Made by a program: the position numbers and the translations under genes. Below are positions 955 to 28,067 of a DNA stretch of 36,209 bases, one piece after another. The notes below the pieces were generated by a model. The model worked only from the letters and a program-made list of their open reading frames with translations, was not told the DNA's origin and searched no databases. Position 1 is the stretch's first letter. Each line of letters opens with the position of its first letter. The stretch comes from Candidatus Thermoflexus tengchongensis (GTDB lineage: Bacteria > Chloroflexota > Anaerolineae > Thermoflexales > Thermoflexaceae). The DNA lies in contig JAEVEX010000001.1 in the NCBI GenBank assembly GCA_016842085.1, positions 1 through 36,209 of the forward strand, read 5' to 3'.

Positions 955-3303
955 TCATGGGCCCTTCACGTGTTCTTTGTGACCTTCGTGGTGGGTTTTG
1001 TAGAGGTTGATGCGTCCGTCCCGACCATGGAGGCGCAGGCGGGTGGGAGTTATCCCGGAGACGGGCTCTGCTCCGGGGCATTCCCAGCCGCTGAGGGTCA
1101 GTTCGGCGACGAACGCGTCCTGCGCCAGGTGGAGGGTCAGCGAGTCGGCAGCGCGCTCCACCCGGCGCACCTCGGCGGTGGCGTAGCGGAGGAGGACGCC
1201 TTCCGTGACCTGCCATTCCAGAGGCAGGATGGCGCCCTGGCGCGCGGGCAGATGGACCGGGTGGCCGCCGAAAAGGAGCTCTCCCTGCCAGGCGACGGTG
1301 GTCGTTATGGGGTCGTCCTGGTAGTTGTGAATGAAAAGAAAACCGCCGTGCTTGCCCTGGCTCAGGCGCACGTCGGCCCAGTCGCTGAGGGCGAAGGCGG
1401 GGGGGCATCCCAGTTCCAGCGCCATACGGTGCAGGAGGTCCAGGTCTTCCAGGTTGTTGATTCTCAGCGCGGCGCCGAAGACCAGCGCCTTGCCCTGGCC
1501 CAGGTGTCGAATGAAGCCGACGGTCTCGCCTTGTCGGGAGGCAAACACCCCGTCGAAGTCGCCGCGATAGGTCTCCACAAAGGAGACGGGCACGTCCGTG
1601 TATCCAAAGGCGGTGATGCAGGAGGGGGTGAAGGGCGGGTCGCTATAGGCATCGACCACGCGGAGGGCGTCTCGCAGGAGAGGGCAGGGGTAACCATCCG
1701 CGTCGTATCGGGGCAGACGGCCGATCATGGCCAGCCGTCCGCCCGCGCGGACGTAGTCGGCCAGCTTCTGCTGGACTGCGGCGTCGCAGCGGTGTTCGAT
1801 CATCACCCAGAGCGTGGGGGTCTCGTTCGGATCCAGGACGGCGCGGGCCAGTTCCAACGCATGGAAGGGGCGGTGCGTCAACGCCAGGCCACGGGCGATG
1901 AAGTCGAAGAGGATGACCTCGCGCTGATGGGTGAGGATGCGGGTCGCTTCCCCAGTGGCCGGAGTGTTCACCTCGGTCATGAAGTCGTCCAGGCGGAAGC
2001 CAATCGCGGTGACGGTCTGCGGGCGGGCAAGGGTCAGGGCGTCGCCGTAGGCCGCCAGAGCGGCCGAGAGTTGGGGATAGCGCCCGTAATGGCGGCGGAG
2101 GGTGCCGTCTTTGCGGACAGGGTGGCCCCAGTCGTGGCGTTTGACCGGGGAAAGCAGGGGGTGGTTTTCGCCGTCAAAGAAAAGGTAGTGATTGATGGCC
2201 CGCATCCCGACGGAGAGGCTCAGGCGGGTGTGCAGGTCGTAGAAGGAGGTCTGCGCGCCGCTGAAGTCCTGGTTGCCGCCGGCCTGGAACTCCATGGAGA
2301 AGAGCGGCTGGTCCGGGTTCTGCAGGGCGCGGGTCATCTCGTTGACCAGCAGGAGCTCATGAAAGTTTCCTTCGTCGATGTGGCCCGGGTAGACGTCGGT
2401 GGCGGATAGGACGCCGGGCAGTTCTATGACCTCTATCAGTTGGGAGAGGCCGATGGGGAAGGTCTTGCCGCCGTTGGCGAAGCCGTGGATGTTAATGACC
2501 GGCGGCACTTCCAGGCCGCAGGCGCGGGCCTGTTCCAGCAGGTAAAGGGCATACCGGCGCAGATACGTGCGAAAGAAGCGGCGGTAGTCCTCAACAGCGC
2601 GGGCCGCCTGGGGGCTTTGGGGATCAGTAATGCCCTGGCGGAGCGCGGCGGTCAGGTCAGGGAACGGGTACCGCTCCGCCAGGCGGTCGCCGTAAACATC
2701 CCGCAGGTAATCGGCGAAGCAGGCCAGGGTATGAGGGTTCGTGTCCAGGATGTTGCGGACCCAGTGCATCATGCCCATCTCGTTATCCAGCTGGACAGCG
2801 AGGACCCGTCCGCCGCACGTGACCTGGCGGGGAGCGAGGACCTCGAAAACGGCGCGGTACCAGCGGGCGACGCAGGCCAGAAAGTCGGGGTGCAGATAAC
2901 TGACGATGTTCTGCGACTGCCCGTGCTGGTCCACAAAGGCCATCTGGGGGTAGCGGACGAAAACCCAGTCCGGGATGCCCTCGTTGATGGTCTCGGCCAT
3001 AATATACGGCCCGGGGCGGGGGAGAATCCAGAGGTCCATAGATGCGGCCAGGTCCAGGAAGCCGATGAGGTTCCGCATGGGATGGCTGTGGCCGTCAAAA
3101 TCCAGTTGGCCCTCTTCGGGCTCATGCCAGCGCCAGGGGATGTAGGTGGCGACGGCGTTGAAGCCGGCCGCCTTAAGCAGGCCAAGGCGGTGCTCCCAGG
3201 CGTCAGGGGGCGTGCGGAAGTAGTGGAATTCGCCTGCCTGGAGGAGGAGCGGACGGTTGTCTATCCAGAAGAGGTTGTTATGGACGGTGAAGGTCGGGCG
3301 CAT
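955..3303 (-). CDS. GH35-like beta-galactosidase
   Basis: A predicted retaining glycoside hydrolase of 782 residues that would remove terminal beta-galactosyl (or similar) units from oligosaccharides. The N-terminal third is a (beta/alpha)8 barrel with GH35 hallmarks: GEFHYFR (24-30), PRPGPYIMAE (95-104), QLDNEMG (171-177, E175 as acid/base) and SMEFQAGG with E338 as the likely nucleophile. All-beta domains follow. No signal peptide is seen, so it probably acts in the cytoplasm after import. The ATG at 3303 was chosen because GGAG precedes it by 7 bases; an upstream TTG at 3417 would translate a repeat. The last residues, including KTHHEGHKEH, are encoded by a dispersed repeat (958-1005). It is the last gene of the sugar operon, separated from the LacI gene by tandem hairpins. 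A GH42-like or other clan GH-A specificity cannot be excluded. Confidence 0.87.
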   Translation of the reverse strand: MRPTFTVHNNLFWIDNRPLLLQAGEFHYFRTPPDAWEHRLGLLKAAGFNAVATYIPWRWHEPEEGQLDFDGHSHPMRNLIGFLDLAASMDLWILPRPGPYIMAETINEGIPDWVFVRYPQMAFVDQHGQSQNIVSYLHPDFLACVARWYRAVFEVLAPRQVTCGGRVLAVQLDNEMGMMHWVRNILDTNPHTLACFADYLRDVYGDRLAERYPFPDLTAALRQGITDPQSPQAARAVEDYRRFFRTYLRRYALYLLEQARACGLEVPPVINIHGFANGGKTFPIGLSQLIEVIELPGVLSATDVYPGHIDEGNFHELLLVNEMTRALQNPDQPLFSMEFQAGGNQDFSGAQTSFYDLHTRLSLSVGMRAINHYLFFDGENHPLLSPVKRHDWGHPVRKDGTLRRHYGRYPQLSAALAAYGDALTLARPQTVTAIGFRLDDFMTEVNTPATGEATRILTHQREVILFDFIARGLALTHRPFHALELARAVLDPNETPTLWVMIEHRCDAAVQQKLADYVRAGGRLAMIGRLPRYDADGYPCPLLRDALRVVDAYSDPPFTPSCITAFGYTDVPVSFVETYRGDFDGVFASRQGETVGFIRHLGQGKALVFGAALRINNLEDLDLLHRMALELGCPPAFALSDWADVRLSQGKHGGFLFIHNYQDDPITTTVAWQGELLFGGHPVHLPARQGAILPLEWQVTEGVLLRYATAEVRRVERAADSLTLHLAQDAFVAELTLSGWECPGAEPVSGITPTRLRLHGRDGRINLYKTHHEGHKEHVKGP
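958..1005. repeat. Dispersed 'CACGAAGGTCACAAAG' repeat at the GH35 3' end
   Basis: On the minus strand the sequence ACCACGAAGGTCACAAAG and the following ACACG bases belong to the same degenerate family as 9898-9975 and 11979-12066. Here it supplies the last 15 or so codons of the GH35 gene, giving an unusual His/Lys/Glu-rich tail. Confidence 0.6.
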
Positions 3304-3362
3304 CGGTGTGCTCCATAAAAAGTTGAATCCCTGAGGGATAGTAGGCCTGCAGAAAACCGTGG

Positions 3363-3417
3363 TTGTATCGAATCCGTCCCGGGAGGTCCGGACGTAGACG
3401 TCCGGGCTCAGATACAA
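3363..3417. repeat. Nested inverted repeat upstream of GH35 gene
   Basis: Outer arms TTGTATC (3363-3369) and GATACAA (3411-3417) enclose a perfect inner hairpin CCGGACGT-AG-ACGTCCGG (3388-3405). It lies about 60-115 bases upstream of the GH35 start codon, within the LacI-GH35 gap. It may be a mobile repeat unit or an mRNA structure affecting GH35 expression. Confidence 0.55.
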
Positions 3418-3580: not shown

Positions 3581-4561
3581 CTATTTTGCATTCCTACCCC
3601 TGAGGGAAGATTCCCGGACGACGAGATGGGCCGGGATGCGTTCGGCAGAGAAGGGAGTTCCGCGATCCAGAAACTCTATCAGCCCGGCGACAGCGCGAGC
3701 CCCCCAGTCGGTGCGGGAGACGCGGACGGTGGTGAGCGACGGCCGGAGGTAGCGGGCAACGGGGATGTCGTCAAAGCCCACCAGGGCCACATCCTGGGGA
3801 ACACGCAGGCCCCCTTCCTGCAACATGTGGAGGCACCCGATGGCCATCTGGTCGTTGGCGCAGACGATGGCCTCAGGGACGTCGCCTGAAGTGAGGATCT
3901 GCCGGGCAATCCGGTAGCCGGAGGCCTCGGTGAAATCGCCCTGGTAGAGGCGAACTTCCAGGCCATGCGCGCGGGCTTCTTTCAGGAAGGCCTGCTGGCG
4001 CTCGGCGTTATCAAAAGAATCGGCGGCGCCCGCGACGAAGGCCAGTTTCCGGACCCCCTGGCTGTAGAGATGCTGGAAGACCTGGCGTATGCCGCCGGGA
4101 TTGTCGATCAGCAAGGGGAAGACATGGTCGGCCTCTATGTAGCGATCCAAGACCACGATGGGAAAGTTCTTCCAGGCCAGGCTGATGAGGAGGTCGCTGG
4201 GAATTTTGACGTCAAAGACGATGGCCGCGTCCACCTGGCGGTTGGAGAGGATGCGGCTGATAGAGCGGGTCTCCGGGCAGATGACCAGTTCGTAATCGGT
4301 CTGCAGGATGACTTTGTGAATGCCCTCCAGGATTTCCTCATAGAAGAGGCCGCCCAGGGCGGCGATGAAGACGCCGATGGTGTAGGTGCGGCGCTTGCGC
4401 AGGTGGCGGGCATGGGCGTTGGGATGATAGCGCAGCTCCTCGGCGGCAGCCAGGACCCGCCGCCGGGTTTCTTCGCTGATGTTCCCCTTGCCGTTTAGGA
4501 CCAGGGAGACGGTGGTGATGCTGACTCCGGCACGCCGGGCCACATCTTTGAGGGTTACCAT
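3581..4561 (-). CDS. LacI-family transcriptional regulator
   Basis: A 326-residue repressor of the LacI/GalR family. The helix-turn-helix is at about residues 3-25 (LKDVARRAGVSITTVSLVLN), the hinge helix near 46-57 ends in HARHLRKRR, and a periplasmic-binding-protein-like effector domain fills about 60-320 (VCANDQMAIG, VGFDDIPVARY). These proteins bind a sugar and release a palindromic operator with a central CG. Such an operator, AGTAAAACGTTTTACT, lies at 20985-21000 on the promoter of the whole operon, so autoregulation together with the transport and glycosidase genes is the simplest model. Its ATG overlaps the TAA of the PF10091 gene by 7 bases. It is followed by tandem hairpins before GH35. 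The inducer cannot be read from the sequence. Confidence 0.95.
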   Translation of the reverse strand: MVTLKDVARRAGVSITTVSLVLNGKGNISEETRRRVLAAAEELRYHPNAHARHLRKRRTYTIGVFIAALGGLFYEEILEGIHKVILQTDYELVICPETRSISRILSNRQVDAAIVFDVKIPSDLLISLAWKNFPIVVLDRYIEADHVFPLLIDNPGGIRQVFQHLYSQGVRKLAFVAGAADSFDNAERQQAFLKEARAHGLEVRLYQGDFTEASGYRIARQILTSGDVPEAIVCANDQMAIGCLHMLQEGGLRVPQDVALVGFDDIPVARYLRPSLTTVRVSRTDWGARAVAGLIEFLDRGTPFSAERIPAHLVVRESSLRGRNAK

Positions 4562-5928
4562 TTCCTGATTTCCAGCCTCTCCAGACCTTTGAGGATGTAG
4601 GGGTTGTTCATCGTGATCCGGTAGACGACATCGTTCTGGGCATTCGCCAGCATCAGCAGGGAGATGCCCTTATCTATGCCGATGACGTCACGGGCGAACC
4701 AATCTTCAGTCAGGTTGAAGGCGTCCTGGAAACCGTAGGGACCCTTCAGCCGATCCAGAGTGAAATAATATACCATAGCCTGCCGGGATTGTTCGGGCAG
4801 GAAGAGGATGGACCCAATCGCCCCCGCCGGGGCGACGGTGTCGTCCACCAGGTGTTGCCGGTTGTCGTAGCCGGAGGGCGGCGCACCGTAACGGCCTTCA
4901 TAGCCGTGGGGGCCGTCGCAGGCGGTCAGGCCCCAGGCCAGGGGGCCGAGGGTCAGGTACTTTTCGTCCATATTCACCGCGAAGTTGTAGTGGGCCTTCG
5001 CGGCCTCCACGGAGTTGGCGAACCAGTCCACGCCCTGGCGGTCGGTCCGGCCGCGAAAGTCTATCCAGGCATGGCTGTACTGGTAGGTGAAGAGGGAGCC
5101 GAACCAGGAGTGGATGAAAGGCTGGCCGTCGCCGTAGCGGGCCCGGTGCCGGGTGAACGTGTAATAGATGGAGGGGTCCAAGGGATAGGTGGGGGAGCCG
5201 GCCGCCAGGACGTAGAGCATCAACTGTTCGGCGTAGAAGTCCCAGTGGCCCTCAAACCCTTTCTCAGGGCGGTAGGCCATATAGAACATGTTGCGGGAGG
5301 GATCCACGAACCAGGGCCACTCCACGGCCGTGTAGATCGCCTGCGCTTTGGCCTGCGTTTCGCCACCGCAGTAGTCGCCTGCGGTCAGGACGCCCATGAG
5401 CAGGATGGCGGTATCGATGCTGGAGACTTCGCTCTGCCAGGCCCTCTGTCCGGTCTCCATATCCAGGAAGTGGTAGTAGAAACCGTGCTCGCGAGGTATA
5501 GCCGCCAGGGTGTCCAGGGTTCCGTCTATGCGCGCACAGGCCTGCGCGCGGGGGATGTAGCCTTTCTCCACGCCGATCACATACGCGGTCAGCCCGAAGC
5601 CCACGGCGGCGATGCTGGAGATGCCCGGAGAACCGGGATAGCGATCCCGGATCAGGCCGTAACCGGGACTGCCGGGGGTTGTGTTGGCCTGCTCCCAGAA
5701 GAAGTTGAAGGCGCCGCGCATTTCCCACTCTATGACGTCATCGGCGGAGACCGGCGTGGGGGTAGGAGCAGGCCTCCACGTCGGGGAGGGGGAAGGCGGG
5801 ATGGCCGTGGGGGTCTGCTCCAGGACGGTCAACGTCACCGTCGGAGCCGGCGCGGCGCAGGCGGCCATGGTCAAAAGCGGAACGCAGACAAACGCAGATA
5901 TACGCCGATTTGCGCTTTGTTTATTCAC
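4555..5928 (-). CDS. PF10091 glycoamylase-family (GH144-like) lipoprotein
   Basis: A 457-residue exported lipoprotein with a GTG start (5928), preceded by GGGGA and overlapping the permease stop by 8 bases. An N-terminal signal with lipobox TMAAC (Cys near 24) leads to a Pro/Thr linker (about 30-60). The body (about 65-445) matches the PF10091 'glycoamylase' alpha/alpha-barrel: FNFFWEQAN, GLIRDRYPG, SSIAAVGFGLTAYVIGVEKG, FYYHFLDMETG, then SSIDTAILLMGVLTAG. Characterised members of this fold include GH144 endo-beta-1,2-glucanases and a domain of cyclic beta-1,2-glucan synthases, so it probably cuts a beta-glucan at the cell surface; older 'glucoamylase' names are misleading. Its product would be a substrate for the ABC importer and the GH94 enzyme. 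The first 20 codons overlap a dispersed repeat at 5878-5918. Confidence 0.85.
   Translation of the reverse strand: MNKQSANRRISAFVCVPLLTMAACAAPAPTVTLTVLEQTPTAIPPSPSPTWRPAPTPTPVSADDVIEWEMRGAFNFFWEQANTTPGSPGYGLIRDRYPGSPGISSIAAVGFGLTAYVIGVEKGYIPRAQACARIDGTLDTLAAIPREHGFYYHFLDMETGQRAWQSEVSSIDTAILLMGVLTAGDYCGGETQAKAQAIYTAVEWPWFVDPSRNMFYMAYRPEKGFEGHWDFYAEQLMLYVLAAGSPTYPLDPSIYYTFTRHRARYGDGQPFIHSWFGSLFTYQYSHAWIDFRGRTDRQGVDWFANSVEAAKAHYNFAVNMDEKYLTLGPLAWGLTACDGPHGYEGRYGAPPSGYDNRQHLVDDTVAPAGAIGSILFLPEQSRQAMVYYFTLDRLKGPYGFQDAFNLTEDWFARDVIGIDKGISLLMLANAQNDVVYRITMNNPYILKGLERLEIRKW
5878..5918. repeat. Dispersed 'ACGCAGA' repeat at the PF10091 5' end
   Basis: The plus strand shows degenerate iterations of ACGCAGA (AACGCAGACAAACGCAGATA, then ACGCCGATTTGCG). 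I recognise this as a common intergenic repeat type in several bacterial phyla. Here it lies inside the start of a gene and encodes the n-region and part of the hydrophobic core of the lipoprotein signal peptide. Confidence 0.55.
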
Positions 5929-6919
5929 CGGTAATCCCCGTCCTTTCTACGGATTCCACAAACCATCGCTGGAGGACGAAGTACATGACCAGGAGCGGCA
6001 GGATGTTCAGGAAGGTTCCGGCCAGTTTGATCGCTTCGTTCAGACGGTCAAAGATATTGACCGTGCCGGGCGGGTAGAGGTTCTGATAGGCCTGGACGAA
6101 CCGGGAAAGCTGCATCGGCAAGGTCTGGATGCCGCCTTCCAGAAAGATGACCGTCAGGTAGGTCTCGTTCCAGTACCAGACGATGGAGAAGATGAAGGAG
6201 ACGATGTAGGCCGGAAGGGCATTGGGGACCGCGATCTGGAAGAAGATGCGGGCCTCGGTGGCGCCGTCTATCCGGGCGGCCTCTTCCAGGACTTTGGGGA
6301 GGGAGAGGAAGGTCTGGTAGAAGATGAGTATGAAGATGGCGCTGCGGAATCCCTGACCGCCCAGGGCGGGGAGAACCAGCGACCAGAGCGTGCCCAGCAG
6401 GCCCAGGCGGCGGTAGGTCAGCATCTGCGGGATGGCGGTGTTCTGCGGCGGGATGATGAAGGTCGCCAGAATCAGGGCGAAGAGCAGGGGCTTGCCGGGA
6501 AAGCGGTAGCGGGCCAGTCCATAGCCGACAATGGAACAGACCACCGTCTGCAGAACCGAGGGCACCACGCTGACCAGGATGGAGGCCAGGAGGGTGGAGG
6601 GGTAGTTGAGCACCCGGAAGGCCCGGACATAGTTGCCGAAGTATAGCTCCGTCGGCACCCATTGCACCATCGGGTTGAGCAGGTCCGTGGGGCTCTTCAG
6701 GCTGGTGATGAGCATGAACAGGAGCGGGTAGAGGTAGACGAAGCCGATGGCCACCAGCAGGGCATACACCACCAGGATGAAGAGCAATCCATAGCGGGCA
6801 TGGGTGCCCAGCAGGACGCCGCGAACCCGATCCCGGTACCCCGGCCATTGAGCGAGCACGCTCCGGAGACGGGCCAGCCACTCAGAGGGGAGGGTCTTCC
6901 TCAACGGATGAGCCGCCAT
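5921..6919 (-). CDS. Sugar ABC transporter permease, MalG type (pair 2)
   Basis: Inner-membrane subunit of a carbohydrate ABC importer, 332 residues with a 45-residue cytoplasmic N-terminus and six predicted membrane segments starting around YGLLFILVVYALLVAIGFVY. The EAA loop that docks the ATPase is clear: EEAARIDGATEARIFFQIAVP at about residues 212-232. It forms a heterodimer with the MalF-type protein encoded 3 bases upstream. An AAAGGTG ribosome site lies about 7 bases before the ATG. No ATP-binding subunit is encoded in this operon. It is the second of two permease pairs and follows the DUF5696 gene, whereas pair 1 follows the large binding protein. Confidence 0.93.
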   Translation of the reverse strand: MAAHPLRKTLPSEWLARLRSVLAQWPGYRDRVRGVLLGTHARYGLLFILVVYALLVAIGFVYLYPLLFMLITSLKSPTDLLNPMVQWVPTELYFGNYVRAFRVLNYPSTLLASILVSVVPSVLQTVVCSIVGYGLARYRFPGKPLLFALILATFIIPPQNTAIPQMLTYRRLGLLGTLWSLVLPALGGQGFRSAIFILIFYQTFLSLPKVLEEAARIDGATEARIFFQIAVPNALPAYIVSFIFSIVWYWNETYLTVIFLEGGIQTLPMQLSRFVQAYQNLYPPGTVNIFDRLNEAIKLAGTFLNILPLLVMYFVLQRWFVESVERTGITGE

Positions 6920-6922
6920 CGC

Positions 6923-7804
6923 TCACACCTTTGCCGCACGGGATCGGAGGGCCAGATATACGATCAGCAAGATCAGGATCAGGACGGCGAAATACAGAAA
7001 GGACATCGCGCTGGCGTAGCCGATGCCGCCTTTGATGTCGTAGGTCTGGGTGTAGATATAGCGCACGAGTTTGTTTTCGGAAAAGTGCGAGAGGGTGATG
7101 ACGGTGTAGACCGCCACTACAATGTTGGTGGTAGAAAGGGAGGGGAGGGTGATTTTCCAGAAGGACTCCCAGGCGGAGGCGCCGTCTATGGCGGCGGCCT
7201 CGTAGATGCTGCGGTCTATCTTCTGCAGGCTGGCCAGGTAGATGAGAATCTGCACGCCGGAGAACCAGAGACTAAGGATGAACGACGTCATCAGATATTC
7301 GGCGGGGCCGCGCAGGACGCCGGGCAACCGGGCGAGGAACTCCAGGACGATCGGAGACTGGGCGATCTGGGGGACCGTCGTGGCGCCCTGGGCGACCAGT
7401 TCCCGGATGACCGGCCCGCTGGTGATGACAACAGGCAGGAAGAAGATGGTGCGGAAGAGGCCCTTCAGCGACAATTTCAGATTGAGGAAAAGGGCAATGA
7501 TGAGGGAGAAGATCATAATGATCGGCACCGAGAAGATGGTTTCCACCGCATATTCGATCAGCAGTTCCACGAAGATCGGGTCGGTGAAGAGGGCGCGCGT
7601 GTAGTTCTGCCAGCCGACGAAGGTCTGCTCCACGCCCGTGGCGGAGACGATGACATGGTTCAGGCTGTAGCGGAACGTCTCCACCAGGGGGACCAGGGTG
7701 AAAAGGATGAAGCCAACAATCCACAGGGCGACGAACGCGTAGCCCTGGAGGGCCTGTCGGGTGCGATAACGGAGGGATATGGAGGGACGGGACGGCGCTT
7801 TCAT
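6923..7804 (-). CDS. Sugar ABC transporter permease, MalF/UgpA type (pair 2)
   Basis: A 293-residue inner-membrane permease and partner of the MalG-type subunit just downstream. It has six predicted membrane helices, the first at about residues 22-44 (GYAFVALWIVGFILFTLVPL), and an EAA loop [21 protein letters not shown] near 205-225. Its ATG overlaps the DUF5696 stop as ATGA, which implies translational coupling. With two binding proteins and two permease pairs in one operon, this pair may serve one of the binding proteins with a distinct sugar specificity. The sequence does not say which. Confidence 0.93.
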   Translation of the reverse strand: MKAPSRPSISLRYRTRQALQGYAFVALWIVGFILFTLVPLVETFRYSLNHVIVSATGVEQTFVGWQNYTRALFTDPIFVELLIEYAVETIFSVPIIMIFSLIIALFLNLKLSLKGLFRTIFFLPVVITSGPVIRELVAQGATTVPQIAQSPIVLEFLARLPGVLRGPAEYLMTSFILSLWFSGVQILIYLASLQKIDRSIYEAAAIDGASAWESFWKITLPSLSTTNIVVAVYTVITLSHFSENKLVRYIYTQTYDIKGGIGYASAMSFLYFAVLILILLIVYLALRSRAAKV

Positions 7805-9993
7805 GGCGTTACCTCCCTGAGGAGAGCATCCCGCGCCGGGATGGTGAGGCCGTAGAGCTGGACGGGAGCCTCATTGTAATTAACCAGAATCTGTTTGCCG
7901 TTGCTGTAGGTGGTGGCGAAGACGCCCGGCGCGACCTGCTCGTGGCCGACGATGCTGGCGCCCTGGACCGGGGCCAGCAGTCCGTTCAGCCAGGCATAAC
8001 TTTCCTCTATTTCTTCTTCCAGCTGGCGATAGGCGGAGACGTAAATCCAATTGGAGCGGGTCTTCAGAATGCGGGCGGTCTCCTCGTGGGTCAGGAAGAA
8101 CGATGGATAGACGCCGTATTCGGCGTGCCGCAGCAGGTCGCCGCGCACGTCGGGGGAGAAGTTCAGCGCCTCGCCGTAGTAAGGGACGTATCCGGAGAGG
8201 ACGATGGGCAGAAACGGCACCGTCTGGGTGGTGAAAATGTAGCCGTTATCGGTGATGGGGAGGTCGTAGATGGCGCGGGCGTAGGCGAAGAGATAGTCGT
8301 TGGGCCGGTAGAGGGCCAGCGGGACGGGGGAACCCTCCAGCAGGGCCCGGTAGGCGGCGATGGCCTCTTCCCGGTTGAGGGAAGCGCCGCGGCGGAAGTC
8401 GGAATAGAGCGTGCCGCCGATGCCGTCCAGCGCCAGGCCGATTCCGCCTTCGTCTTTCAGGCTGCGGCTGAGGGCGGCGAAGCGGGATTGGAGGGCCTGG
8501 AGGTTGAAGTAGAAGTTGGGCTTGCCGCGCCGGTAGCCTCGCGGATAGTCGCCGGTAATGGCCATGGCCAGGTCGTAGCGGGAGAACGAGCCCGGCTCCT
8601 CTCGCAGCGCGGCGGTCGGGTCCAGATAGAGCGCAAAAGTCCCGCCACGGCGGGCGACCGCTTCGGCTACTTTCCGCAGGTCGGCCCGGCTTCCCAGGGC
8701 CCGCTCCAGTTGCAGGCGGTTGGGGAAGGCCGCCGACGCGCCGCCCGGCTGCCAGCCATAGTAGACCACCTGAGGGTTCTTCACGTCCAGCTGGGCCAGG
8801 ATTTCCTCCATCTGGGCGAGGGTGGTCATCGGGATGACCCGGTTCCAGAAGAGGACCCGCTCCCGCTCCGCGCCCAGAAACTCCAGGCGGATGCCGATAC
8901 CTCCGATGCGCATCTCCTGACGGCGCAACAATCCCTTCTCCAGCAGGTAGCGCTGGTAATTGCGCGCCATGCCGACGTAATTGGCCTCGGGGCCGGCCAG
9001 AAAGCGGTAGTGCAGGACGATGTCAAAGCGGTTGGTCTGTGGCTGGATGACGGTCACGCCGTCGCCGGAGCGGCTGGTGCGCTGGAAATAACTCTCGTTG
9101 TAGATGAAGGCGTTGTAGAGGAAATTGAAGTTGGTGATGATCCCGGCGGGATGGGCCTGAATTTCGGCGTAGGAAGCGCCTTTCTCCAGCACGGCCAGGT
9201 AAGCGTTGGGCCCGGCCGAGTGGACCATCCCGATGACCGGGACCGAGATGGGATACGGAGGCCGCAGGGTGGGATCAAAGGGCATGGAAACGAGCATGCC
9301 CAGGTCGGGGCCGTAGTAGCGGCCGTAATACATATTTTGGGCCCGGGTTTCGGCGGTGAAGCGAATCAGGCTTCCGCACCCGTCCGGAAGGAACATGTAG
9401 CCCGGGGTCTGGTCGCCCCGCGTGGCGCCCATCCAGGGATAGAGGTGAAGGACGCCCAGCCGAAACTCGCCTTCTTCCCGGATCCACTCCGAGGGCACCT
9501 CCACCCGCACGCCCGTCTCCTCCAGAGTGAGCTGCAATCCCACGGCGATGCCGATCTCGGTGAAGGCGACCTGGGCCCGGATGCCCTGCTCCACAGGTTG
9601 AATCTCTATGGTGTGCTTCGCGTTGGCGATGGAGGCGCGCTTGACGTTGGCCCGCCGGTCCAGGTAGTCCACGCTGAGACCGCTCTGGGCGAAGGCGGTC
9701 CAGGCCCTGTTCAAGCGGTCGCCCGGCGCGCGCTCGTCCAGGTTGGAGTGCCAGATGTAGTGATTGCGCCGGTCCACGACTTTGAAGGCCAGCGTCTCCG
9801 GGTTGACATACAACCGGAAGGTCCCGTTTTCGGCCACCAGCTGGTAGGTCTCCGGGATCCCGTCCGGGCGGGGCGCGGCATGCACGGGAGGGACCCCGAA
9901 GGACACGAAGGAGAACAAAAAGGACACGAGGATGAAAGTTCCGAGCCCTTTGTGTGCCCTTTGGGACCTTCGCGGCAAACCTTTTACGCCCAT
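7801..9993 (-). CDS. DUF5696-type secreted protein, possible TIM-barrel glycosidase
   Basis: An exported 730-residue protein. The signal peptide spans about residues 1-40 (charged n-region, LVSFLFSFVSFG core, cleavage near VHAA). A beta-rich domain (about 45-330, starting with FRLYVNPETLAFKVVDRRN) precedes what looks like a (beta/alpha)8 barrel (about 360-620), with strand-end motifs VVYYGWQPGG (409-418), FALYLDP (453-459) and GLALDGIGGTLYSD (519-532). The alternating beta-sandwich and barrel, and Asp residues at strand ends (D458, D523), recall clan GH-D/GH-A enzymes. I match it to DUF5696 from memory, and from memory such proteins sit near sugar ABC and YIP1 genes in Paenibacillus. The catalytic role is inference. 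Start ATG has GGGGA before it, one base after the NHL-YIP1 stop. The signal-peptide DNA is a dispersed repeat (9898-9975). Confidence 0.7.
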   Translation of the reverse strand: MGVKGLPRRSQRAHKGLGTFILVSFLFSFVSFGVPPVHAAPRPDGIPETYQLVAENGTFRLYVNPETLAFKVVDRRNHYIWHSNLDERAPGDRLNRAWTAFAQSGLSVDYLDRRANVKRASIANAKHTIEIQPVEQGIRAQVAFTEIGIAVGLQLTLEETGVRVEVPSEWIREEGEFRLGVLHLYPWMGATRGDQTPGYMFLPDGCGSLIRFTAETRAQNMYYGRYYGPDLGMLVSMPFDPTLRPPYPISVPVIGMVHSAGPNAYLAVLEKGASYAEIQAHPAGIITNFNFLYNAFIYNESYFQRTSRSGDGVTVIQPQTNRFDIVLHYRFLAGPEANYVGMARNYQRYLLEKGLLRRQEMRIGGIGIRLEFLGAERERVLFWNRVIPMTTLAQMEEILAQLDVKNPQVVYYGWQPGGASAAFPNRLQLERALGSRADLRKVAEAVARRGGTFALYLDPTAALREEPGSFSRYDLAMAITGDYPRGYRRGKPNFYFNLQALQSRFAALSRSLKDEGGIGLALDGIGGTLYSDFRRGASLNREEAIAAYRALLEGSPVPLALYRPNDYLFAYARAIYDLPITDNGYIFTTQTVPFLPIVLSGYVPYYGEALNFSPDVRGDLLRHAEYGVYPSFFLTHEETARILKTRSNWIYVSAYRQLEEEIEESYAWLNGLLAPVQGASIVGHEQVAPGVFATTYSNGKQILVNYNEAPVQLYGLTIPARDALLREVTP
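9898..9975. repeat. Dispersed 'GACACGAAG' inverted element within DUF5696 start
   Basis: Plus-strand iterations of GGACACGAAGGAGAACAAAA and GGACACGAGG are followed, after a short spacer, by the opposite-strand form CCCTTTGTGTGCCCTTTGGG. The element is therefore hairpin-like. Its two arms encode the basic n-region and the hydrophobic core of the DUF5696 signal peptide. The same plan is seen at 11979-12066. Confidence 0.65.
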
Positions 9994-9994
9994 T

Positions 9995-12085
9995 TCATCC
10001 CCTTAGCCGGATTTCCCGCAGGATGGTCATCACGAAATCCGATAACTGGAGGAACAGCACATACAGAATGTAGCCCGTCAGCAGCATCACGGCCATCGTG
10101 AACAGGGTGGTCAGGATGTTGCGAATAGTCTCGCTGAAGGAGTAGTTGTGGATTTCCTTGACCATGAGGAAGAGCATCAGGCCCGTCCAGGCCCACATCA
10201 GGTTGGTGGAGAAGGTGTACAGGAAGACCTCGTTGGCGCTCAGGAGGTTGGAAAGAAGCGCGATGGGCATGGCGAAGAGGGCATAAGGGAAAAGCGCGTA
10301 AGCGGTGCCGATGACCACGTCCCGAACGCGCCCCTCGCCGTCGCTGATGGTGGAGACCAGGTAGTTGGCCGCGTTCCAGAGCGCCAGGAACACGATGGCG
10401 TAGACCAGCTCGTTGACGGCGCGAATCTCACCGGGATTGGCGTAGGGATTAAAGATGAAGCCGATCACGTAGGGCGTCAGCACCCGGACCGCCACCACCC
10501 ACAGGTAGAGCAGGAAGGCGAACCCCAGACTGCCGCGCTCATTGGTTTTGATGTAGTAGAAACTATCGGCGGGCTGTTGGATGAAGCGGAACATGAACAG
10601 GAAGTCGTCCACCGGTTTCCGCGCCCGCAGCCAGGCCAGCCCGCGCCGCAGCGGGCCAAACCAGCCATAGCGCCGGTTCAGACGTTGGAGCGTGCTCTGG
10701 AGGATGGAGAGGGCGACCAGCGCCAGGATGCCGTCTCCCAGATACCGCTGGAGGATGGCGTTGCGCAGCTCCCAGAAGGCCTCAGAGTAGCCATGGCGGT
10801 CCTCAGCGTAGCGGTAGTAGACCAGGGCACGGGCGTAATCGCCCTCTTTGAAATAGGCGTCGGCGATCGCCTGATAGGCCATGATAAACGAGCCGTTGTA
10901 GCGCAGGACTTCTTCAAAGTAGGGCCGCGCCTGGGTGTAGAAGCCCTCCACATACAGGCGCACGCCGCTGTGGACCAGGCGAGCGAAGCTCGTCGCCTGA
11001 TAGACCACGAGGGCGTTCTTCTCCCGGTCCAGGACATAAATTCGGTCCTCATAGCGGGCGACCGCGCTGGGGTCACGCAGCGTTCCCAGCCGCTGGTCGC
11101 CCTGATCTTTGGCACCGAAGACGAAGAGGAGCATCCCTTTCAGGTTGTACTCGTAGATGCGGCCCTCCGCGTCCACCGCCGTGACCAGCCCGTAGGGGCT
11201 CACGTGAAGGTCGCGAAACGTCGCGGAGCCGTAGATCTCGGGGAAGATGTTGCGCCCGGCGACGGTGAAGCGGCGGATGCTCTGCCGGGGGTTGGTGCCA
11301 GCGGTCACGGTGAAGATCATCCCGTCGGCGTCTATCGCCACGTTGGAGGGAGAGGCGGCCTCGCTCTTGATGAACTGCGCCAGTTGCTCCCTCGTCAGGA
11401 AAAGGCGCTGCAGGATCATCTTGAGGGACATCACGGCCGGGTTGGCGCCGAAGTACCCGACAAAGCGGCCGTTGGTGGTGAGCACCACCAGGCCGTTGGT
11501 GGAACCTTCGCTGACGACGTAGAGGTTCCGGCGGGCGTCCACGACGATTTTGCGCGGCAGGAACTGGTTTTTGCGCCCAAAGAGGGGGTCGTTCGGGCGG
11601 CCGAACCGGCTCAGGAGATTCCCTTCCCGATCCAGAATGACAACGGTGTTGCTTTTGGCGTCGGCGATGTAAAGGGTCCCCGCGCCATCCACAAAGACGC
11701 CGGTGGGGCCTGCTAGCAGGCCCTTCCCGTAGACAGCGGTGACTTCCAGGTCCCGGTTCAGGCGCAGGACGCGGCGGTTGCTCGTGTCGGCGATGTAGAA
11801 GTCGCCGTCGGGCGTGATGAAGAGGTCCTCCGCGCCGGAGACCGGCAGTTCCACCTCGGTCAGGGGCAGGTAGGCGTCCTGGGTCAGGTAAAGCCGTCCC
11901 CCCGGCCCCAGGGCCCAGGTGGTGTAGGGAGCCCGCGTCTCGGCCGGGGTCCACAGCGCCAAGCAGAGCAGGAGCCCCAGGAGGACGCAAAGGACACGCG
12001 AGGGGCGCCAGGGGATGCGGAAAAACTTTGTGCCCTTTACGCCCTTCGTGTCTTTTGTGGTTTTCAAAACGGGAACCCGTTTCAT
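9995..12085 (-). CDS. NHL beta-propeller / TPR / YIP1-family membrane protein
   Basis: A 696-residue membrane protein with three parts. An N-terminal hydrophobic segment (about 29-48) is followed by NHL/SMP-30-like propeller repeats (about 55-375; units such as [41 protein letters not shown]). A short TPR-like stretch comes next (about 385-450; [22 protein letters not shown]). The C-terminal half (about 525-690) is a YIP1-type domain with about five membrane helices ([34 protein letters not shown]). The propeller should face outside. No enzymatic residues are evident. Its ATG overlaps the permease stop as ATGA and its stop lies one base before DUF5696, so it is embedded in the transporter operon. 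It may be an accessory or scaffold for substrate capture; that is inference. The N-terminal [12 protein letters not shown] is repeat-encoded. Confidence 0.8.
11979..12066. repeat. Dispersed 'GACACGAAG' inverted element within NHL-YIP1 start
   Basis: The plus strand has AGGAGGACGCAAAGGACACG on the left and TTTGTGCCCTTTACGCCCTT then CGTGTCTTTTGTGG on the right, again a hairpin-like pair of degenerate arms. Read on the minus strand, the first arm encodes the Lys/Thr-rich N-terminus and the second the VLCVLLG start of the membrane anchor. Confidence 0.65.
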
Positions 12086-13128
12086 CCCTTCAACCCGGAA
12101 TGGGACATGGTGCTCATCACCTGGCTTTGCAGGATCATGAAGATGATCAGGTTGGGCAGGAACATAATCAGCGCGGCCGCAGCGGCCACTCCCTGCCCGG
12201 CGACGACGTTGGCGCCTGACGTTGTGGTGGCCAGCGTGCTCAGGTAGAACGCGAAGGTCTTCAGACTCTCAATGTTGATATACATCGCCGAGGTGTCCGC
12301 GTTGTTCCAGGTGGCCTGGAAGGTCAGAATGGCGATGGTGGCAATGGCCGGCCGGACTATCGGCAGGACGATGTGCCAGTAAATCTGCAGGTCGGAGGCC
12401 CCGTCTATCTGGGCGGCTTCTATGACCTCGTTGGGGACCGTGTCCATGAACTGCTTGAGCAGAAAAACGCCCACCGGCATGGCCAGCGAGGGGAGGATGT
12501 GGGCCCAGAAGGAGTCGATCAGGCCCAGCCGGGCGATGATCAGGAAACGGGGGATGGTGACGGCGATGGGGACGAACATCAGCGCCACCGTGTTGATGGC
12601 GAACAGGGTCTGCTTGAGGCCGAAGCGCTTTTTAGAAAGCGCGTAGGCGGCCAGGCTGGAGACGAGGATGGAGGCGGCCACGGAGATCACCGTGACCACG
12701 ATGCTGTTGAACAGGTAGCGGCTGACGGGCACGTCCGAGGTAGACATCAGCGTGAAGAGGTCGCGGAAGTTTTTCAGGGTTGGGTTCACCACGAAGAAGC
12801 GCGGCGGGTAGACGAAGAGCTCCTCGGCGGGCTTGAAAGCCGTGGAGAAGATGAAGATGATGGGCAGGAGCATAAAGGCCACCACCGGCGTCAGGATGAG
12901 ATAGAAGGGGATCTGGCTGGGGTGGAAACCGGCGGGGTTGATGCCGCTGCCGCGCAGGCCGTACCAGCGGCCAAGCCATTTGCGTTTCGTGGGGGCTGTC
13001 TGAACGCTCGCTGGCAGGGAGACACGGGACGAAACGGGGCGCCATTTTATCGGACCGGGGCGTCGCTCCGCCTCGCTTCGGGGCTGAATACGGGCGCTTT
13101 CCTCTGCGCGTTTTTCCGACCATTCCAT
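12082..13128 (-). CDS. Sugar ABC transporter permease, MalG type (pair 1)
   Basis: A 348-residue inner-membrane permease. The usual MalG core begins around residue 67 ([20 protein letters not shown]), has six predicted helices, and carries the EAA loop [22 protein letters not shown] near 235-256. The ATG at 13128 is kept because GAGGAGGG precedes it by 7-8 bases and no other start lies before the first helix. The resulting 60-residue, Arg/Pro/Ser-rich cytoplasmic extension is unusual for the family and may be repeat-derived. It starts 4 bases after its MalF partner and overlaps the NHL-YIP1 start as ATGA. It depends on an ATPase not encoded here. Confidence 0.93.
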
Positions 13129-13132
13129 CGCT

Positions 13133-14043
<911 letters not shown>

Positions 14044-14047
<4 letters not shown>

Positions 14048-16896
14048 TTCCTCTCCGCGTTCTCCATCCACTGGCGCACCATTTCTATTGTAGGGACCTT
14101 GATTTCGCGAAGCGGGACGCCGTTATGGGTATAACCCAGCTCCTCCATCTTGCGCGCCATCTCGCGATTGATGGTCAGGATGGCGCTATCAATCGCCACA
14201 CGCGGGTTCACGCCGTCGAAGACGATGCGGTTCCAGGCGTTGCTCAACTCCCGCTCCTGCATATACGTGCCCGGCAATCGGACCGGCTGCCGCATCCATC
14301 CCCACTGCTTCAGGATGACGTCCTTGTGCTCCTCCGGGATGGGCAGGGCGCGGAAGGCCTCCACATTGGCGGTGTACCAGAGGTATTCCGGCCCGTAGTT
14401 CATGATGAGTTGACGGCTGAATTCCGTCTGCGTCTCGGTGGACATCCACCACTTCAGGAATTCCCACGATTCCTGCGGTTTTTCAGTATCCGCCAAGATG
14501 ACGCAGGTCTGGGCTGAGCCGGTGGCATAGCGATACTGCCGCCCGTCGGGCAGGACGGTGGCCGGATAGAGAGCAATCCCCCACAGGCCTTCTATCTCCG
14601 GGGCGGCGATGCGCAACTTGATGTAGGTCTCCGCATTGGAGATGCCCACCGGCAGATCCCCGTTGCGGAAACTGTCGTAGAAACTGACGGCCGTGAGCGG
14701 CATCCCGTAGACGGTGAACTGCTCGGCCATAAACTGGAGGCCCCGGATGGCCTCCTCGCTGCCCAGTCCGGTGCGCAGGCCGTCCGGCGTGTAGAGCTCG
14801 CCGCCGAAATTCCAGATATACGGCGCGGTGACCAGATAGCCCTTCAGGCCACTGCCGGCGGAGAGCGGGGTGTAGTAGTTCATACCATAGCGCTGGAGTT
14901 CAGGCAGAATCGCGATGACTTCGTCCCACGTCTGGGGGACCGGGAGCCCCAACCGCTCCAAAATGTCCCGCCGGTAGAAGGTCACCCAGAAGTCCTGCGT
15001 CTCCGGGATGGCGTAGACCGAGTCATTGATGATGTATTCCAGGAGTGCCCCGGGCGAGTAGATGCGGATGAAGGAATCGAAGTCCTCAAAGGAGCGCAGG
15101 TCATAGAGGGCGCCGCGCAGGGCCAGTTCAAAGGGGATGTTGGTGCTGATGCCCAGCGCCACGTCGGGCGCGATGCCCGCCGCAATCGCCAGGGCCAGTT
15201 TGGACTCGTTGGGCATTAGCGAAAACTTGACCCGGATGCCCGTCCGGGGGGTGAACGTCTGGTCCGCCAACTGCTGCATCAGGTCCACATACTGGCGCGG
15301 GCGGTTGACCCAGACCTCTATCTCATCCCTGGCCGCGCCGATGGAGAGATAGGGGGTTTGCTGGAAGGAGTGGATGAGCCGCTTGATATTCTCGATGAAC
15401 GCCTGTCCGATGGGAATCCGGGGCTGGGGCGGCGTAACATCCGGCGAATGCACATAGATTTTGTCCAGCGTGAGGGGCTGCTGCCGCAGGGCCGAGAGGA
15501 CGCTTCCCAGCAACTGGGCCGCCGACTGGGGCCCTTCGGAGAGGCGGTTCATCCGCACCGGGATCTTGTTCGGGTCCGCCTCCAACAGTCGGATGTTCTC
15601 CAGCGCCATCTGGTAGTTCATAATTTCCTGCGAGTTCATCCCGTTGTTGATGGCCTGCAGGGCAGCCTTGTCGGCAGCGAGTTTGTCGGCGATGGTCGCC
15701 AGCCGTTCCTGAAGATCCGGGATGTACTCGGCAATTTCCCACTCCCGGTACCGATCCACCTGGTTGCCCGTCAGCCGCCGGATCTCTAGCGCCAGGTCGT
15801 TGATGATGCGGATGGACTCGCGGATGTTCGTGATGGCGGTGTCATAGGGAGAGGTGGTGACCTCCAGGCCGATGACGTTCCGACCGGCTTGCAGGTGGAC
15901 GCGATAGGGCAGGGTGACGTTCCGCCACCCGGCAGAATAGGCGAAGGGCACCGCGTGGAATTCATCAAAGGGAACGACGCCGTTGATGGTGATGCGCCGG
16001 AAGACGGTGAAGTTGGGGCGGGTGTCCTGCAGGACGCGCAGGGTCAGCAGGTACATGCCGTCCTGGGGCACCGCCACTTCGTAATACAGCGCGCTCCCGC
16101 TCTGTTTCCACGAATCCCCGCCGATGGTGTTGAGGATCAGACGGTAGGTGTCGTAGGGGGTTACGTCCAGACCGCGATTGTAGAGAGGACGGATGGAGGC
16201 ATCATTCTTAAAGGAAGGCCATTCGGCCTCCACTTCCACCTGCACGCCCGACGTGTCCGGGGCCGGTGTCTGGGCCAGGTATTGGCTGTATGAGGGCTCC
16301 GGCGAAAAGGGACGAAAGTAGATGCTTCCCAGCAGGAGCGTCTCGCGGGCAAGCACGAACTCAACGGCGTGCTCGCCCCGCGTCAGGTGGATGGTCAGGG
16401 GGTATTTCCGGCTGAAGTTCACGTCCCGCAGCGAGACCTCGGTCCAGCGCGCCAGGCGCACCGGCGGGGCGGGAATCTGATGCCCGTAGCGGTTCAGGGG
16501 GAACTCGTCGGTCGCGCTGCGGTAGTAGAGGGGGAAGAGGATGCGACGGGCATCTTCCACCGGAAGGGCACCATCCACGAACAGCTGGCCTTCCGGCGGG
16601 AGGAACAGGACCTCCTCCGGCGCGGCGGCGTCAAAGGAGACGGTGTAATCGCCCTCGGTTTCGATCCGGATAGAGAAGCGGACCCGGTCGCCCTTCTCCA
16701 GGCGGACGCAGGGCTTCCCATACTGTCGAGCGAGGGGATCATCGGCCAGGGGCAGGCCGAACGCATCGGCGCGGACCTCGAGGGCCTGCCCTCCCGACCC
16801 GGGGAGAGGAGCGGCGAACAGGGACCTCGGCGGCGGACTGGCCAGGCCGCCGATGACCAGAAGAAGCAGCAGAAAGCAAGGGACCCTGCCCTTCAC
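14044..16896 (-). CDS. Large extracellular binding protein with N-terminal CBM-like domains
   Basis: A 950-residue exported protein starting at GTG 16896 (weak ribosome site) with a signal peptide [20 protein letters not shown] and no clear lipobox. The first half contains two beta-sandwich, carbohydrate-binding-like modules (about 35-165 and 215-370; [34 protein letters not shown]) and a helical connector (about 370-460). The second half (about 515-930) is a family 1 solute-binding domain: [65 protein letters not shown], then [14 protein letters not shown]. Typical binding proteins are 420-550 residues, so this is a fusion that could hold a polymer while passing oligosaccharides to permease pair 1. 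A long GC hairpin lies just upstream of the gene. Confidence 0.88.
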
Positions 16897-17019: not shown

Positions 17020-18450
17020 CTACGGCTTCAGCTCGGCCCGCGCCTCATCCAGCAACCGATTGGCGAACTCCTCCAGCCGGGCGGCGTAGTCCTCGTATTT
17101 GTACTTGCCCGAGCAGGCGAAGTTGAACATGTACCACATATTCACATCCTTGTCTGTGCCGATGTCAATCCCGGGCTTGCCTTCCCAGCGGGCGGCCACG
17201 TAGCCGGGCACGATCTTCGCCAGCGACTCCAGCCGGCTTTTATCCAGGTTCTCAAACGCCGCGCGCAGGCCCGGCTTCTCGCCAACGAAGGAGAGGTACA
17301 AATTAATGGTGTCGGCGTCCACATAGACCGGCATGCGGGTCGGCACCTGCTTGGCCGCTCGGGCGATCTCGGCCTCCGCGAGATACCCTTCGCGCGAGTA
17401 GGTCATCCACTTGGCGAACTTAAAGGCCTCCTCCAGGTTGGCCGAGGTCTTGGAGACGACGATGATGTCGGCCACCAGCGCCTGGTTGCCGCCGGGGATG
17501 CCCAGGAAATCCCAGTTGAAGGTCGCCTGCTGGGCGAAGGCGGGGACCATCCAGCCGCCGTCCCAGCGGACGCCGGACTCCTGGTTCAGGAACAGTTCCC
17601 ACGGGCCCTGGGACTTGAAGTTGGGCTTCTGCTCGTCGGTCAGGCCCTGCCAGGTGTGCGGCAGCACCTCGCAGGCCTTCGCGACAGCGGCCTTGAAGGC
17701 GTCGGAGTTGTAGTGCATATGCTGGCCGTCGAAACTGAACCACTTCAGCTTGGGGTCCTGGGTGCTGGGGTACCAGCCCAGGATGAACTCCATCTCGTCC
17801 AGGCCCAGGCGGCCCTTTTTGACATCGGTCAGCGCGGTGACGGCAGCGAAGAAGTCATCCGCGGAGACGCCGTAGGTTGGCGCATCCAGGTTGTTGGCCT
17901 CAAAGAGGTCGATGTTGACGAAGTAGCCCATTACGAACTGTGCCGCCGGAAGGCCCAGCACCTTGCCGTTATAGGTGACGGCGTCCCGCAGGACCTGGGG
18001 CACCTGCTGCCAGTCGGGGTCGTTGCTGACGAAGGGGGTCAGGTCGGCCAGCCAGCCGTTCTTGACGTAGAGCGGGGTTTTATCGGCCATGAAGACATCC
18101 GGCAACTGACCCTTTGCCGCCAGCGCCGTCAGTTTGTCGTCCCAGGAGCCTTCGCCCGACATGTCCACAATCTCAATGGTGACATGGGGGTTCAGTTCCA
18201 TATACTTCTTGACCAGCTGACGCTGGACGTTGTTTTCCTCTGCGGTGCCCAGGTTCCAGTTCGCGTAGCGGAGCGTCACGGGCGCTGGGGTGGGGGTGGA
18301 AGTGGGAGCTGGTGTCGGTGCGACCGTTGGGGTCGGAGGCGTCGTGGGCTGGGGAGACGGGGTGGGCGTAGCCGCGGGCGCGCATCCGGCCAAGACGACC
18401 GCAAGCGTGGCGATGACCGCCAAGAGACGAGACCCTTTCAGCGCTGTCAT
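17020..18450 (-). CDS. Sugar-binding lipoprotein of ABC transporter (family 1)
   Basis: A 476-residue surface lipoprotein that captures sugar for an ABC importer. The ATG at 18450 is preceded by GGAGGAGAGGAA; a longer frame opening at a GTG (18543) has no spaced ribosome site and no signal-like start. Signal peptide with lipobox VLAGC (Cys near 23), Pro/Thr linker to about 55, then the family 1 binding fold: [79 protein letters not shown]. The second gene of the operon, 113 bases after GH94. A stem-loop follows, consistent with higher expression than the membrane genes. The sugar cannot be named; a beta-gluco-oligosaccharide is a guess from the neighbours. Confidence 0.93.
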
Positions 18451-18563
18451 TTTCCTCTCCTCCTCCTTCGTCTGGTGGGAATGGGTGATAGAAACTGGAC
18501 GGATAGATGTCGGGGAAGCGATTGGGAATTTTCCGCAGGCCACCTCCTTTCTGGTAAAAGGGT

Positions 18564-26927: not shown

Positions 26928-26949
26928 CGGCCCCTCCTTTCTTCAGCTC

Positions 26950-26981
26950 AGGTAGGACAACTGCTCGCAGGTGTCCTACCT
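26950..26981. terminator. Inverted repeat AGGTAGGACA/TGTCCTACCT
   Basis: A 10-bp perfect stem with a 12-base loop between the C45 hydrolase stop and the binding-protein start. On the minus strand no T-run follows, so it is more likely an attenuator, an mRNA-processing site or a dispersed repeat than a full terminator. Confidence 0.5.
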
Positions 26982-28061: not shown

Positions 28062-28067
28062 CAGCCC

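What the first reader, a model, noticed from the sequence alone, without database searches (positions are those of the whole stretch)
7801..9993. DUF5696 protein may be an undescribed glycoside hydrolase family
After a beta-rich N-terminal domain the protein shows alternating strand/helix segments with barrel-like strand ends (VVYYGWQPGG, FALYLDP, GLALDGIGGTLYSD) and Asp at D458 and D523. This resembles TIM-barrel glycosidases of clans GH-A/GH-D. It is exported and encoded among sugar transport and glycosidase genes. No catalytic assignment is established to my knowledge.
Basis: inference. Interest (0 to 1): 0.6.

Follow-up and report, generated by a model that had tools for sequence, protein, structure and literature searches.

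The report
Degenerate glycosidase inside a sugar importer
The DUF5696 protein has the fold of a known sugar-cutting enzyme family (GH129), but most of its wider family lacks the expected cutting residues and it always sits in one fixed gene block with two pairs of sugar-import channels, so it is probably a retired enzyme used as a part of an undescribed sugar importer.

Summary
The gene is real: window 7801-9993(-), 730 aa, signal peptide, full-length PF18952 (DUF5696). A confident AlphaFold model (pLDDT 91, pTM 0.90) shows a beta-sandwich, a TIM barrel and a C-terminal beta domain, and matches GH129 over its whole length (Z 28; next families 19 or less). Profile alignment to GH129 agrees (about 1e-22; controls 0.02 or worse). 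So the barrel guess is right; the closest known kind is GH129.

The catalytic guess fails for the family. D523 aligns best with the GH129 nucleophile but is acidic in 87% of clade I and 2% of clade II. No acid is conserved where GH129 has its strand-5 Glu (Asn565 in 89%). D458 is on strand 3 and varies.

The new observation is the context: one conserved block of large substrate-binding protein, two permeases, NHL/Yip1 membrane protein, DUF5696, two permeases, across Chloroflexota, Bacillota and Acholeplasma relatives. In 301 Chloroflexota genomes, DUF5696 and NHL/Yip1 occur in the same 27. In the window the block sits in a beta-1,2-glucan locus. Best reading: a pseudo-glycosidase subunit of an undescribed dual-permease sugar importer. 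Biochemistry is untested.

The parts
7801..9993 (-). DUF5696 protein (730 aa), exported, GH129-like fold
9877..9993 (-). Sec-type signal peptide (residues 1-39, ...PPVHA|AP)
   Evidence: sequence; low-confidence N-terminus in the model
8995..9846 (-). N-terminal beta-sandwich domain (residues 50-333), with near-invariant P203-D204-G205-x-G207
7954..8898 (-). TIM barrel (residues about 366-680)
8620..8622 (-). D458 codon, end of strand 3; D in 98 of 141 members
8425..8427 (-). D523 codon, end of strand 4; best alignment to the GH129 nucleophile (NagBb Asp435 / ZgGH129 Asp486); D in 83 of 141 members
8299..8301 (-). N565 codon, end of strand 5, region of the GH129 second catalytic Glu; Asn in 125 of 141 members
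7813..7953 (-). C-terminal beta domain (residues 681-727)
9995..12085 (-). NHL beta-propeller / TPR / Yip1 membrane protein, invariant neighbour of DUF5696
12082..13128 (-). ABC permease B1 (BPD_transp_1, MalG/UgpE-like)
13133..14071 (-). ABC permease B2 (MalF/UgpA-like)
14044..16896 (-). 950-aa substrate-binding protein (SBP950): about 480-residue N-terminal beta/helical part plus C-terminal MBP-like SBP domain
6923..7804 (-). ABC permease A2 (MalF/UgpA-like)
5921..6919 (-). ABC permease A1 (MalG/UgpE-like)
4555..5928 (-). PF10091 enzyme, GH144-like (best PDB hits XCC2207 and endo-beta-1,2-glucanase)
3581..4561 (-). LacI-family regulator
955..3417 (-). GH35-like protein, best PDB hit beta-1,2-glucosyltransferase of Ignavibacterium album (7vkw)
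17020..18543 (-). second, ordinary-sized substrate-binding protein; close homologue of PDB 22hh (E 1.4e-211)
18564..20957 (-). [quoted passage not shown]

Best explanation
DUF5696 is a GH129-derived pseudo-glycosidase: an exported sugar-binding or docking subunit of an undescribed carbohydrate importer. Shown: the GH129-like fold; the lack of a conserved catalytic pair in the family; and an invariant gene block of large SBP, permease B2, permease B1, NHL/Yip1 protein, DUF5696, permease A2, permease A1. Inferred: the barrel keeps a cleft that binds a glycan end, or rests against the transporter, without cutting it. It would sit outside the membrane with the NHL propeller and the large SBP and link two permease pairs, driven by a shared MalK-type ATPase encoded elsewhere in the genome. 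In the window the cargo is most likely linear beta-1,2-gluco-oligosaccharides made by the GH144-like enzyme and then phosphorolysed by GH94.
For: Fold: AF2 pLDDT 91.2, pTM 0.90; Foldseek top hits are GH129 (5opq E 4.9e-30); VIA Z 28.5 (5wzq) and 27.8 (5opq, 8rzk) over residues 50-730, against 19 or less for GH13/GH101/GH36. Sequence: profile-profile E 1.7e-22 to GH129, controls P 0.02 or worse; bridge protein L028 hits both DUF5696 (2e-25) and GH129 (2.5e-11). Catalytic loss: column 523 is D83 R20 S10 Q7 L5 T4 G3 of 141; no conserved acid at 560-566; clade I 87% acid, clade II 2%; at least 7 changes on the tree. Loss with the same block and even the same kind of beta-1,2-glucan enzyme nearby: L103 (A523), L108-L111 (H, R, S, Q). 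Obligate context: all block parts are present in practically all loci with full flanks, and in 16 of 17 distant loci with full flanks; DUF5696 and NHL/Yip1 are found in the same 27 of 301 genomes. MalK-type ATPase in the same genome. Meanwhile T390, G413, W414, Y567, N611 and Y666 stay conserved in both clades, which suggests a site that is used but not catalytic. In one genus a hydrophobic hairpin is inserted in the strand-4 loop, right at the would-be active-site face.
Against: D523 is invariant in the window's own clade (57 of 57), so something selects for it there. The second catalytic residue differs even among active relatives: PMC5698469 reports that only Asp435 of NagBb's two catalytic residues is conserved in ZgGH129, so absence of a strand-5 Glu alone does not prove inactivity. 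Position 563 is Glu in some Bacillota members that keep D523. Sugar binding and physical association with the permeases were not tested. The alignment at strand 4 is uncertain by about 4-5 residues in some runs.
Confidence: 0.57

Rival explanations
1. DUF5696 of the window's clade is an active, exported alpha-glycosidase or transglycosylase of a new GH129-related family: D523 is the nucleophile and another acid (for example D458, D577, E371 or a residue of a partner chain) is the proton donor.
For: D523 aligns with GH129 Asp435/Asp486 in the profile alignment and through the bridge protein L028 and is invariant in 57 window-clade members; E371 and D577 are 100% and 96% acidic in clade I. ZgGH129 needs an Asp from the other monomer (PMC5698469), so unusual arrangements exist in this fold.
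Against: D523 is lost in 13 clade I members, several with the same gene block and the same kind of beta-1,2-glucan enzyme, and in practically all of clade II, which also keeps the block. D458 is not invariant even in the window clade (Asn in 6). The known GH129/GH101 enzymes cut alpha links, whereas the locus handles beta-1,2-glucan.
Confidence: 0.25
2. DUF5696 is a structural or sensory partner of the NHL/Yip1 protein or the permeases and binds no sugar at all.
For: Exact co-occurrence with NHL/Yip1; the most conserved positions include many Gly, Pro and Tyr of the N-domain and possible interfaces; hydrophobic hairpin on the barrel face in one genus.
Against: Polar and aromatic residues at the C-terminal ends of barrel strands (T390, W414, Y567, N611) remain conserved in both clades, as expected for a ligand site; the block is always with sugar-type SBPs and permeases.
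Confidence: 0.16

Closest known systems
GH129 (NagBb of Bifidobacterium bifidum; ZgGH129/DagB of Zobellia)
   Same: Whole-length fold: N-terminal sandwich, barrel, C-terminal beta domain (Z about 28); collinear profile alignment; shared GW..G....P motif after strand 2; D523 at the nucleophile position in the best alignment
   Different: 15-16% identity; strand-5 Glu (NagBb E478 / ZgGH129 E517) not conserved; nucleophile position not conserved in the family; always inside a transporter gene block
GH101 endo-alpha-N-acetylgalactosaminidase
   Same: Same superfamily by fold (Z about 17.5) and weak Pfam hits of bridge proteins
   Different: Clearly weaker match than GH129; much larger multidomain enzymes
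CUT1-type sugar ABC importers (maltose, beta-1,2-gluco-oligosaccharide type)
   Same: MalF/MalG-like permease pair, MBP-like SBP (best structural match Lin1841 5ysb, Z 35.6, tied with others), no ATPase in the operon
   Different: Two permease pairs, a 950-aa SBP with an extra N-terminal half, plus an NHL/Yip1 membrane protein and DUF5696
beta-1,2-glucan gene cluster of Ignavibacterium album (PMC8861115)
   Same: GH144, GH94 like the C-terminal part of cyclic glucan synthase, GH35 of the IaSGT type, ABC transporter
   Different: The passages of that paper that I read describe no DUF5696 or Yip1 component

Membership tests
PF18952 DUF5696 | Profile match above the gathering score over the full model | tested here: met
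   564 bits against 25.6, profile 3-611 of 612
GH129 | Fold: N-terminal beta-sandwich, TIM barrel, C-terminal beta domain | tested here: met
   VIA Z 27.8-28.5 over 50-730; Foldseek E 4.9e-30
GH129 | Pfam PF11308 match | tested here: not met
   Not among matches at E 1 or below for the window protein; PF11308 finds nothing in the window's genome
GH129 | Nucleophile Asp (NagBb D435, ZgGH129 D486) conserved in the family | tested here: not met
   Present in the window clade (D523) but D in only 83 of 141 family members
GH129 | Strand-5 catalytic Glu (NagBb E478) | tested here: not met
   No conserved acid at 560-566; Asn565 in 125 of 141
GH129 | Alpha-glycosidase activity | not testable with these tools
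   Needs an enzyme assay
GH101 | Profile PF12905 match | tested here: not met
   No match at E 1 or below for the window protein
GH31/GH36 | Overall fold | tested here: inconclusive
   Distant matches only (GH36 Z about 17.8; GH31 Foldseek E about 1e-12), well below GH129
CUT1 sugar ABC importer (the gene block) | MalFG-like permeases and sugar SBP | tested here: met
CUT1 sugar ABC importer (the gene block) | MalK-type ATPase available | tested here: met
   One MalK-type ATPase elsewhere in the genome; its use by this importer is inferred

The most novel reading that the evidence does not exclude
An undescribed class of sugar importer in Chloroflexota, Bacillota and Acholeplasma relatives: two permease pairs, a double-length binding protein, an NHL/Yip1 membrane scaffold and an exported subunit made from a GH129 glycosidase that has lost its catalytic pair.
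Probability: 0.5. Interest if true: 0.75.

Novelty: new variant of a known kind. Interest (0 to 1): 0.58.

Why it matters
A family of unknown function gets a fold, a relative with solved structures and a concrete testable role. If the reading holds, it is a case of a glycosidase turned into a transporter part, and it points to an importer architecture that the papers I could search do not describe. It also warns against annotating DUF5696 as a glycoside hydrolase.

Tried and rejected
1) A conserved D458/D523 catalytic pair: rejected for the family. 2) Clan GH-A, GH31 or GH36 as the nearest kind: GH129 stands well above them. 3) Single-sequence PDB search: nothing; only the profile showed GH129. 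4) GH129 search in the Paenibacillus phylum gave nothing, nor did the controls, so it says nothing about absence. 5) Automatic order strings gave 49 of 58 full-flank loci; the other 9 are mostly two permease ORFs merged by my overlap filter, since the tblastn table shows hits to both A and both B permeases there; L104 is the doubtful one (best permease-B1 hit lies on the far side). 6) Exact position of the strand-5 Glu: it falls on residue 562-563 (MAFFT) or 565 (by motif); either way no conserved acid. NagBb D435 goes to 523 in the profile alignment and to 528 in MAFFT; ZgGH129 D486 goes to 523 in two of three MAFFT runs; I prefer 523 because of the G-x-[DE]-[GAC]-x-x-x-D pattern, the L028 bridge and the strand end. 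7) A fixed substrate for the block: neighbours vary (SOGP, GH94, GH144-like, GH43, GH106, GH3), so beta-1,2-glucan is claimed only for loci like the window's. 8) No paper with DUF5696 or describing this block with Yip1 in the open-access library; subscription papers, preprints and CAZy itself were not searchable. 9) The N-terminal half of the large SBP: only weak CBM35/Golvesin hits, and the fold list was filled by its SBP domain. 10) A viral fold search was started but not collected.

Full report
What is there. Window 7801-9993(-) encodes 730 aa, a full-length DUF5696 (PF18952, 564 bits), with a signal peptide readable in the sequence. The quoted motifs and D458/D523 are correct. No NCBIfam model and no credible single-sequence PDB hit matched it, and no open-access paper mentions DUF5696.

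Fold. From 71 homologues fetched from genome contigs AlphaFold gave a confident model, pLDDT 91.2, pTM 0.90: beta-sandwich 50-333, TIM barrel about 366-680, C-terminal beta domain 681-727. In the PDB the best matches are the two structurally known GH129-type enzymes, NagBb and ZgGH129, over the whole length (Foldseek E 4.9e-30; VIA Z 27.8-28.5). The next groups (GH13, FpGalactosaminidase, GH36, GH101) score 19 or less. Independently of the model, the family profile finds ZgGH129 and NagBb in PDB sequences (E 0.0015-0.005), a 141-sequence DUF5696 profile aligns collinearly to a small GH129 profile at E 1.7e-22 while unrelated profiles give 0.02 or worse, and a bridge protein, L028, hits both Pfam families.

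Catalytic residues. PMC5698469 states that of NagBb's two catalytic residues only Asp435 is conserved in ZgGH129 (as Asp486), and that ZgGH129 also needs Asp202 of the neighbouring monomer, Glu517 and Glu531. That NagBb's second catalytic residue is Glu478 is my own recollection; the motif around it (TSSE) lines up with NGTE517 of ZgGH129. Profile alignment, the L028 bridge and the motif pattern put D523 on Asp435/Asp486, at the end of predicted strand 4; some alignments shift this by 4-5 residues, so the identity is likely, not certain. D458 is at the end of strand 3 and aligns beside the 'HDQY' motif of NagBb (His366-Asp367), not with an acid/base. On strand 5 the Glu of NagBb (478) and ZgGH129 (517) fall on residues 562-565, where no acid is conserved; position 565 is Asn in 125 of 141.

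The nucleophile position is not conserved: D 83, R 20, S 10, Q 7, L 5, T 4, G 3 and others. The tree has two great clades. Clade I (98 sequences, including the window) is 87% acidic at 523; clade II (43) is 2%; the window's own clade (57) is 100%. Members without the acid include Listeria newyorkensis (L103, Ala) and Acholeplasma relatives (L108 His, L109 Arg, L110 Ser, L111 Gln), which carry the same gene block and a GH144-like enzyme beside it. So whatever the block does in that context does not need an acid at 523. In contrast T390, G413, W414, Y567, P593, G601, N611 and Y666 are kept in both clades.

Gene context, the stronger finding. In the window the order is SBP950, permease B2, permease B1, NHL/TPR/Yip1 protein, DUF5696, permease A2, permease A1. 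The same block is found around the homologues in Chloroflexota, Bacilli, Clostridia, Listeria and Acholeplasma relatives, and with profiles also in distant DUF5696 loci. Of 20 such loci fetched, L170 and L173 are cut by contig ends and L163 lacks room for the SBP gene. Of the other 17, sixteen carry every part: fifteen in the standard order, one (L178) with all parts in a rearranged order. The exception is L169, which has a GH106-like gene where the SBP/permease-B half should be. In many of them the NHL and Yip1 parts are separate genes. In 301 Chloroflexota genomes the strong DUF5696 hits (27 genomes) and the NHL/Yip1 profile hits (27 genomes) are the same genomes. The block holds no ATPase; the genome has one MalK-type ATPase elsewhere, as is usual for CUT1 importers.

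Cargo. [quoted passage not shown] That is the enzyme set of the I. album beta-1,2-glucan cluster (PMC8861115), and a Chloroflexus aurantiacus endo-beta-1,2-glucanase has been used in the laboratory (PMC12102758). The SBP domain of SBP950 resembles the Listeria beta-1,2-gluco-oligosaccharide binder best (Z 35.6), tied with other sugar binders. Elsewhere the block has other neighbours (GH43, GH106, GH3, SOGP), so it is not tied to one glycan.

Mechanism proposed. Shown: fold, degeneration, obligate linkage. Inferred: an exported, non-cleaving glycan-binding or docking subunit that works with the NHL/Yip1 protein and the large SBP on two permease pairs. The main rival is that the window's clade, which keeps D523, is still an enzyme with an unusual proton donor (0.25). 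A third option is a purely structural role (0.16).

Limits. I had no coordinates for superposition, no complex prediction, no binding or activity data, and no access to CAZy or subscription literature. 'Undescribed' therefore means not found in the libraries searched here.

Noticed in passing
L023-L027 (about protein residues 550-607, inserted after window residue 533): In one Chloroflexota genus the DUF5696 barrel carries two strongly hydrophobic segments (a likely membrane hairpin) inserted in the loop after strand 4, at the would-be active-site face; these proteins also lack the acid at 523.
   Followed up: partly
window 14044-16896: 950-aa substrate-binding protein whose first half (about 1-480) is a confident beta-sandwich plus helical region with only weak CBM35/Golvesin-like hits in some homologues.
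   Followed up: partly
window 17020-18543: Second SBP (507 aa) is a close homologue (E 1.4e-211) of a very recent PDB set 22hh/22hi/22hj/22hk/22hl, 'Extracellular solute-binding protein family 1'; ligand and source not looked up.
   Followed up: no
window 955-20957: The whole region looks like a beta-1,2-glucan utilisation locus (GH144-like, GH94, GH35/IaSGT-like, LacI, two SBPs, four permeases).
   Followed up: partly
L169 (Bacillota): DUF5696 with NHL/Yip1 and permeases A but with a GH106-like gene where the SBP and permease B genes should be; some genomes of this phylum carry up to four listed DUF5696 paralogues.
   Followed up: partly
L028, L029, L030, L035, L036: Proteins between DUF5696, DUF6259, GH129 and GH101 (weak hits to several of these), a possible wider superfamily of uncharacterised GH129-like proteins in Chloroflexota.
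   Followed up: partly
window 21578-30177: Opp/Dpp-type peptide ABC importer genes followed by an AAT-type acyltransferase, an acyl-CoA dehydrogenase-like gene and a family III CoA-transferase.
   Followed up: no
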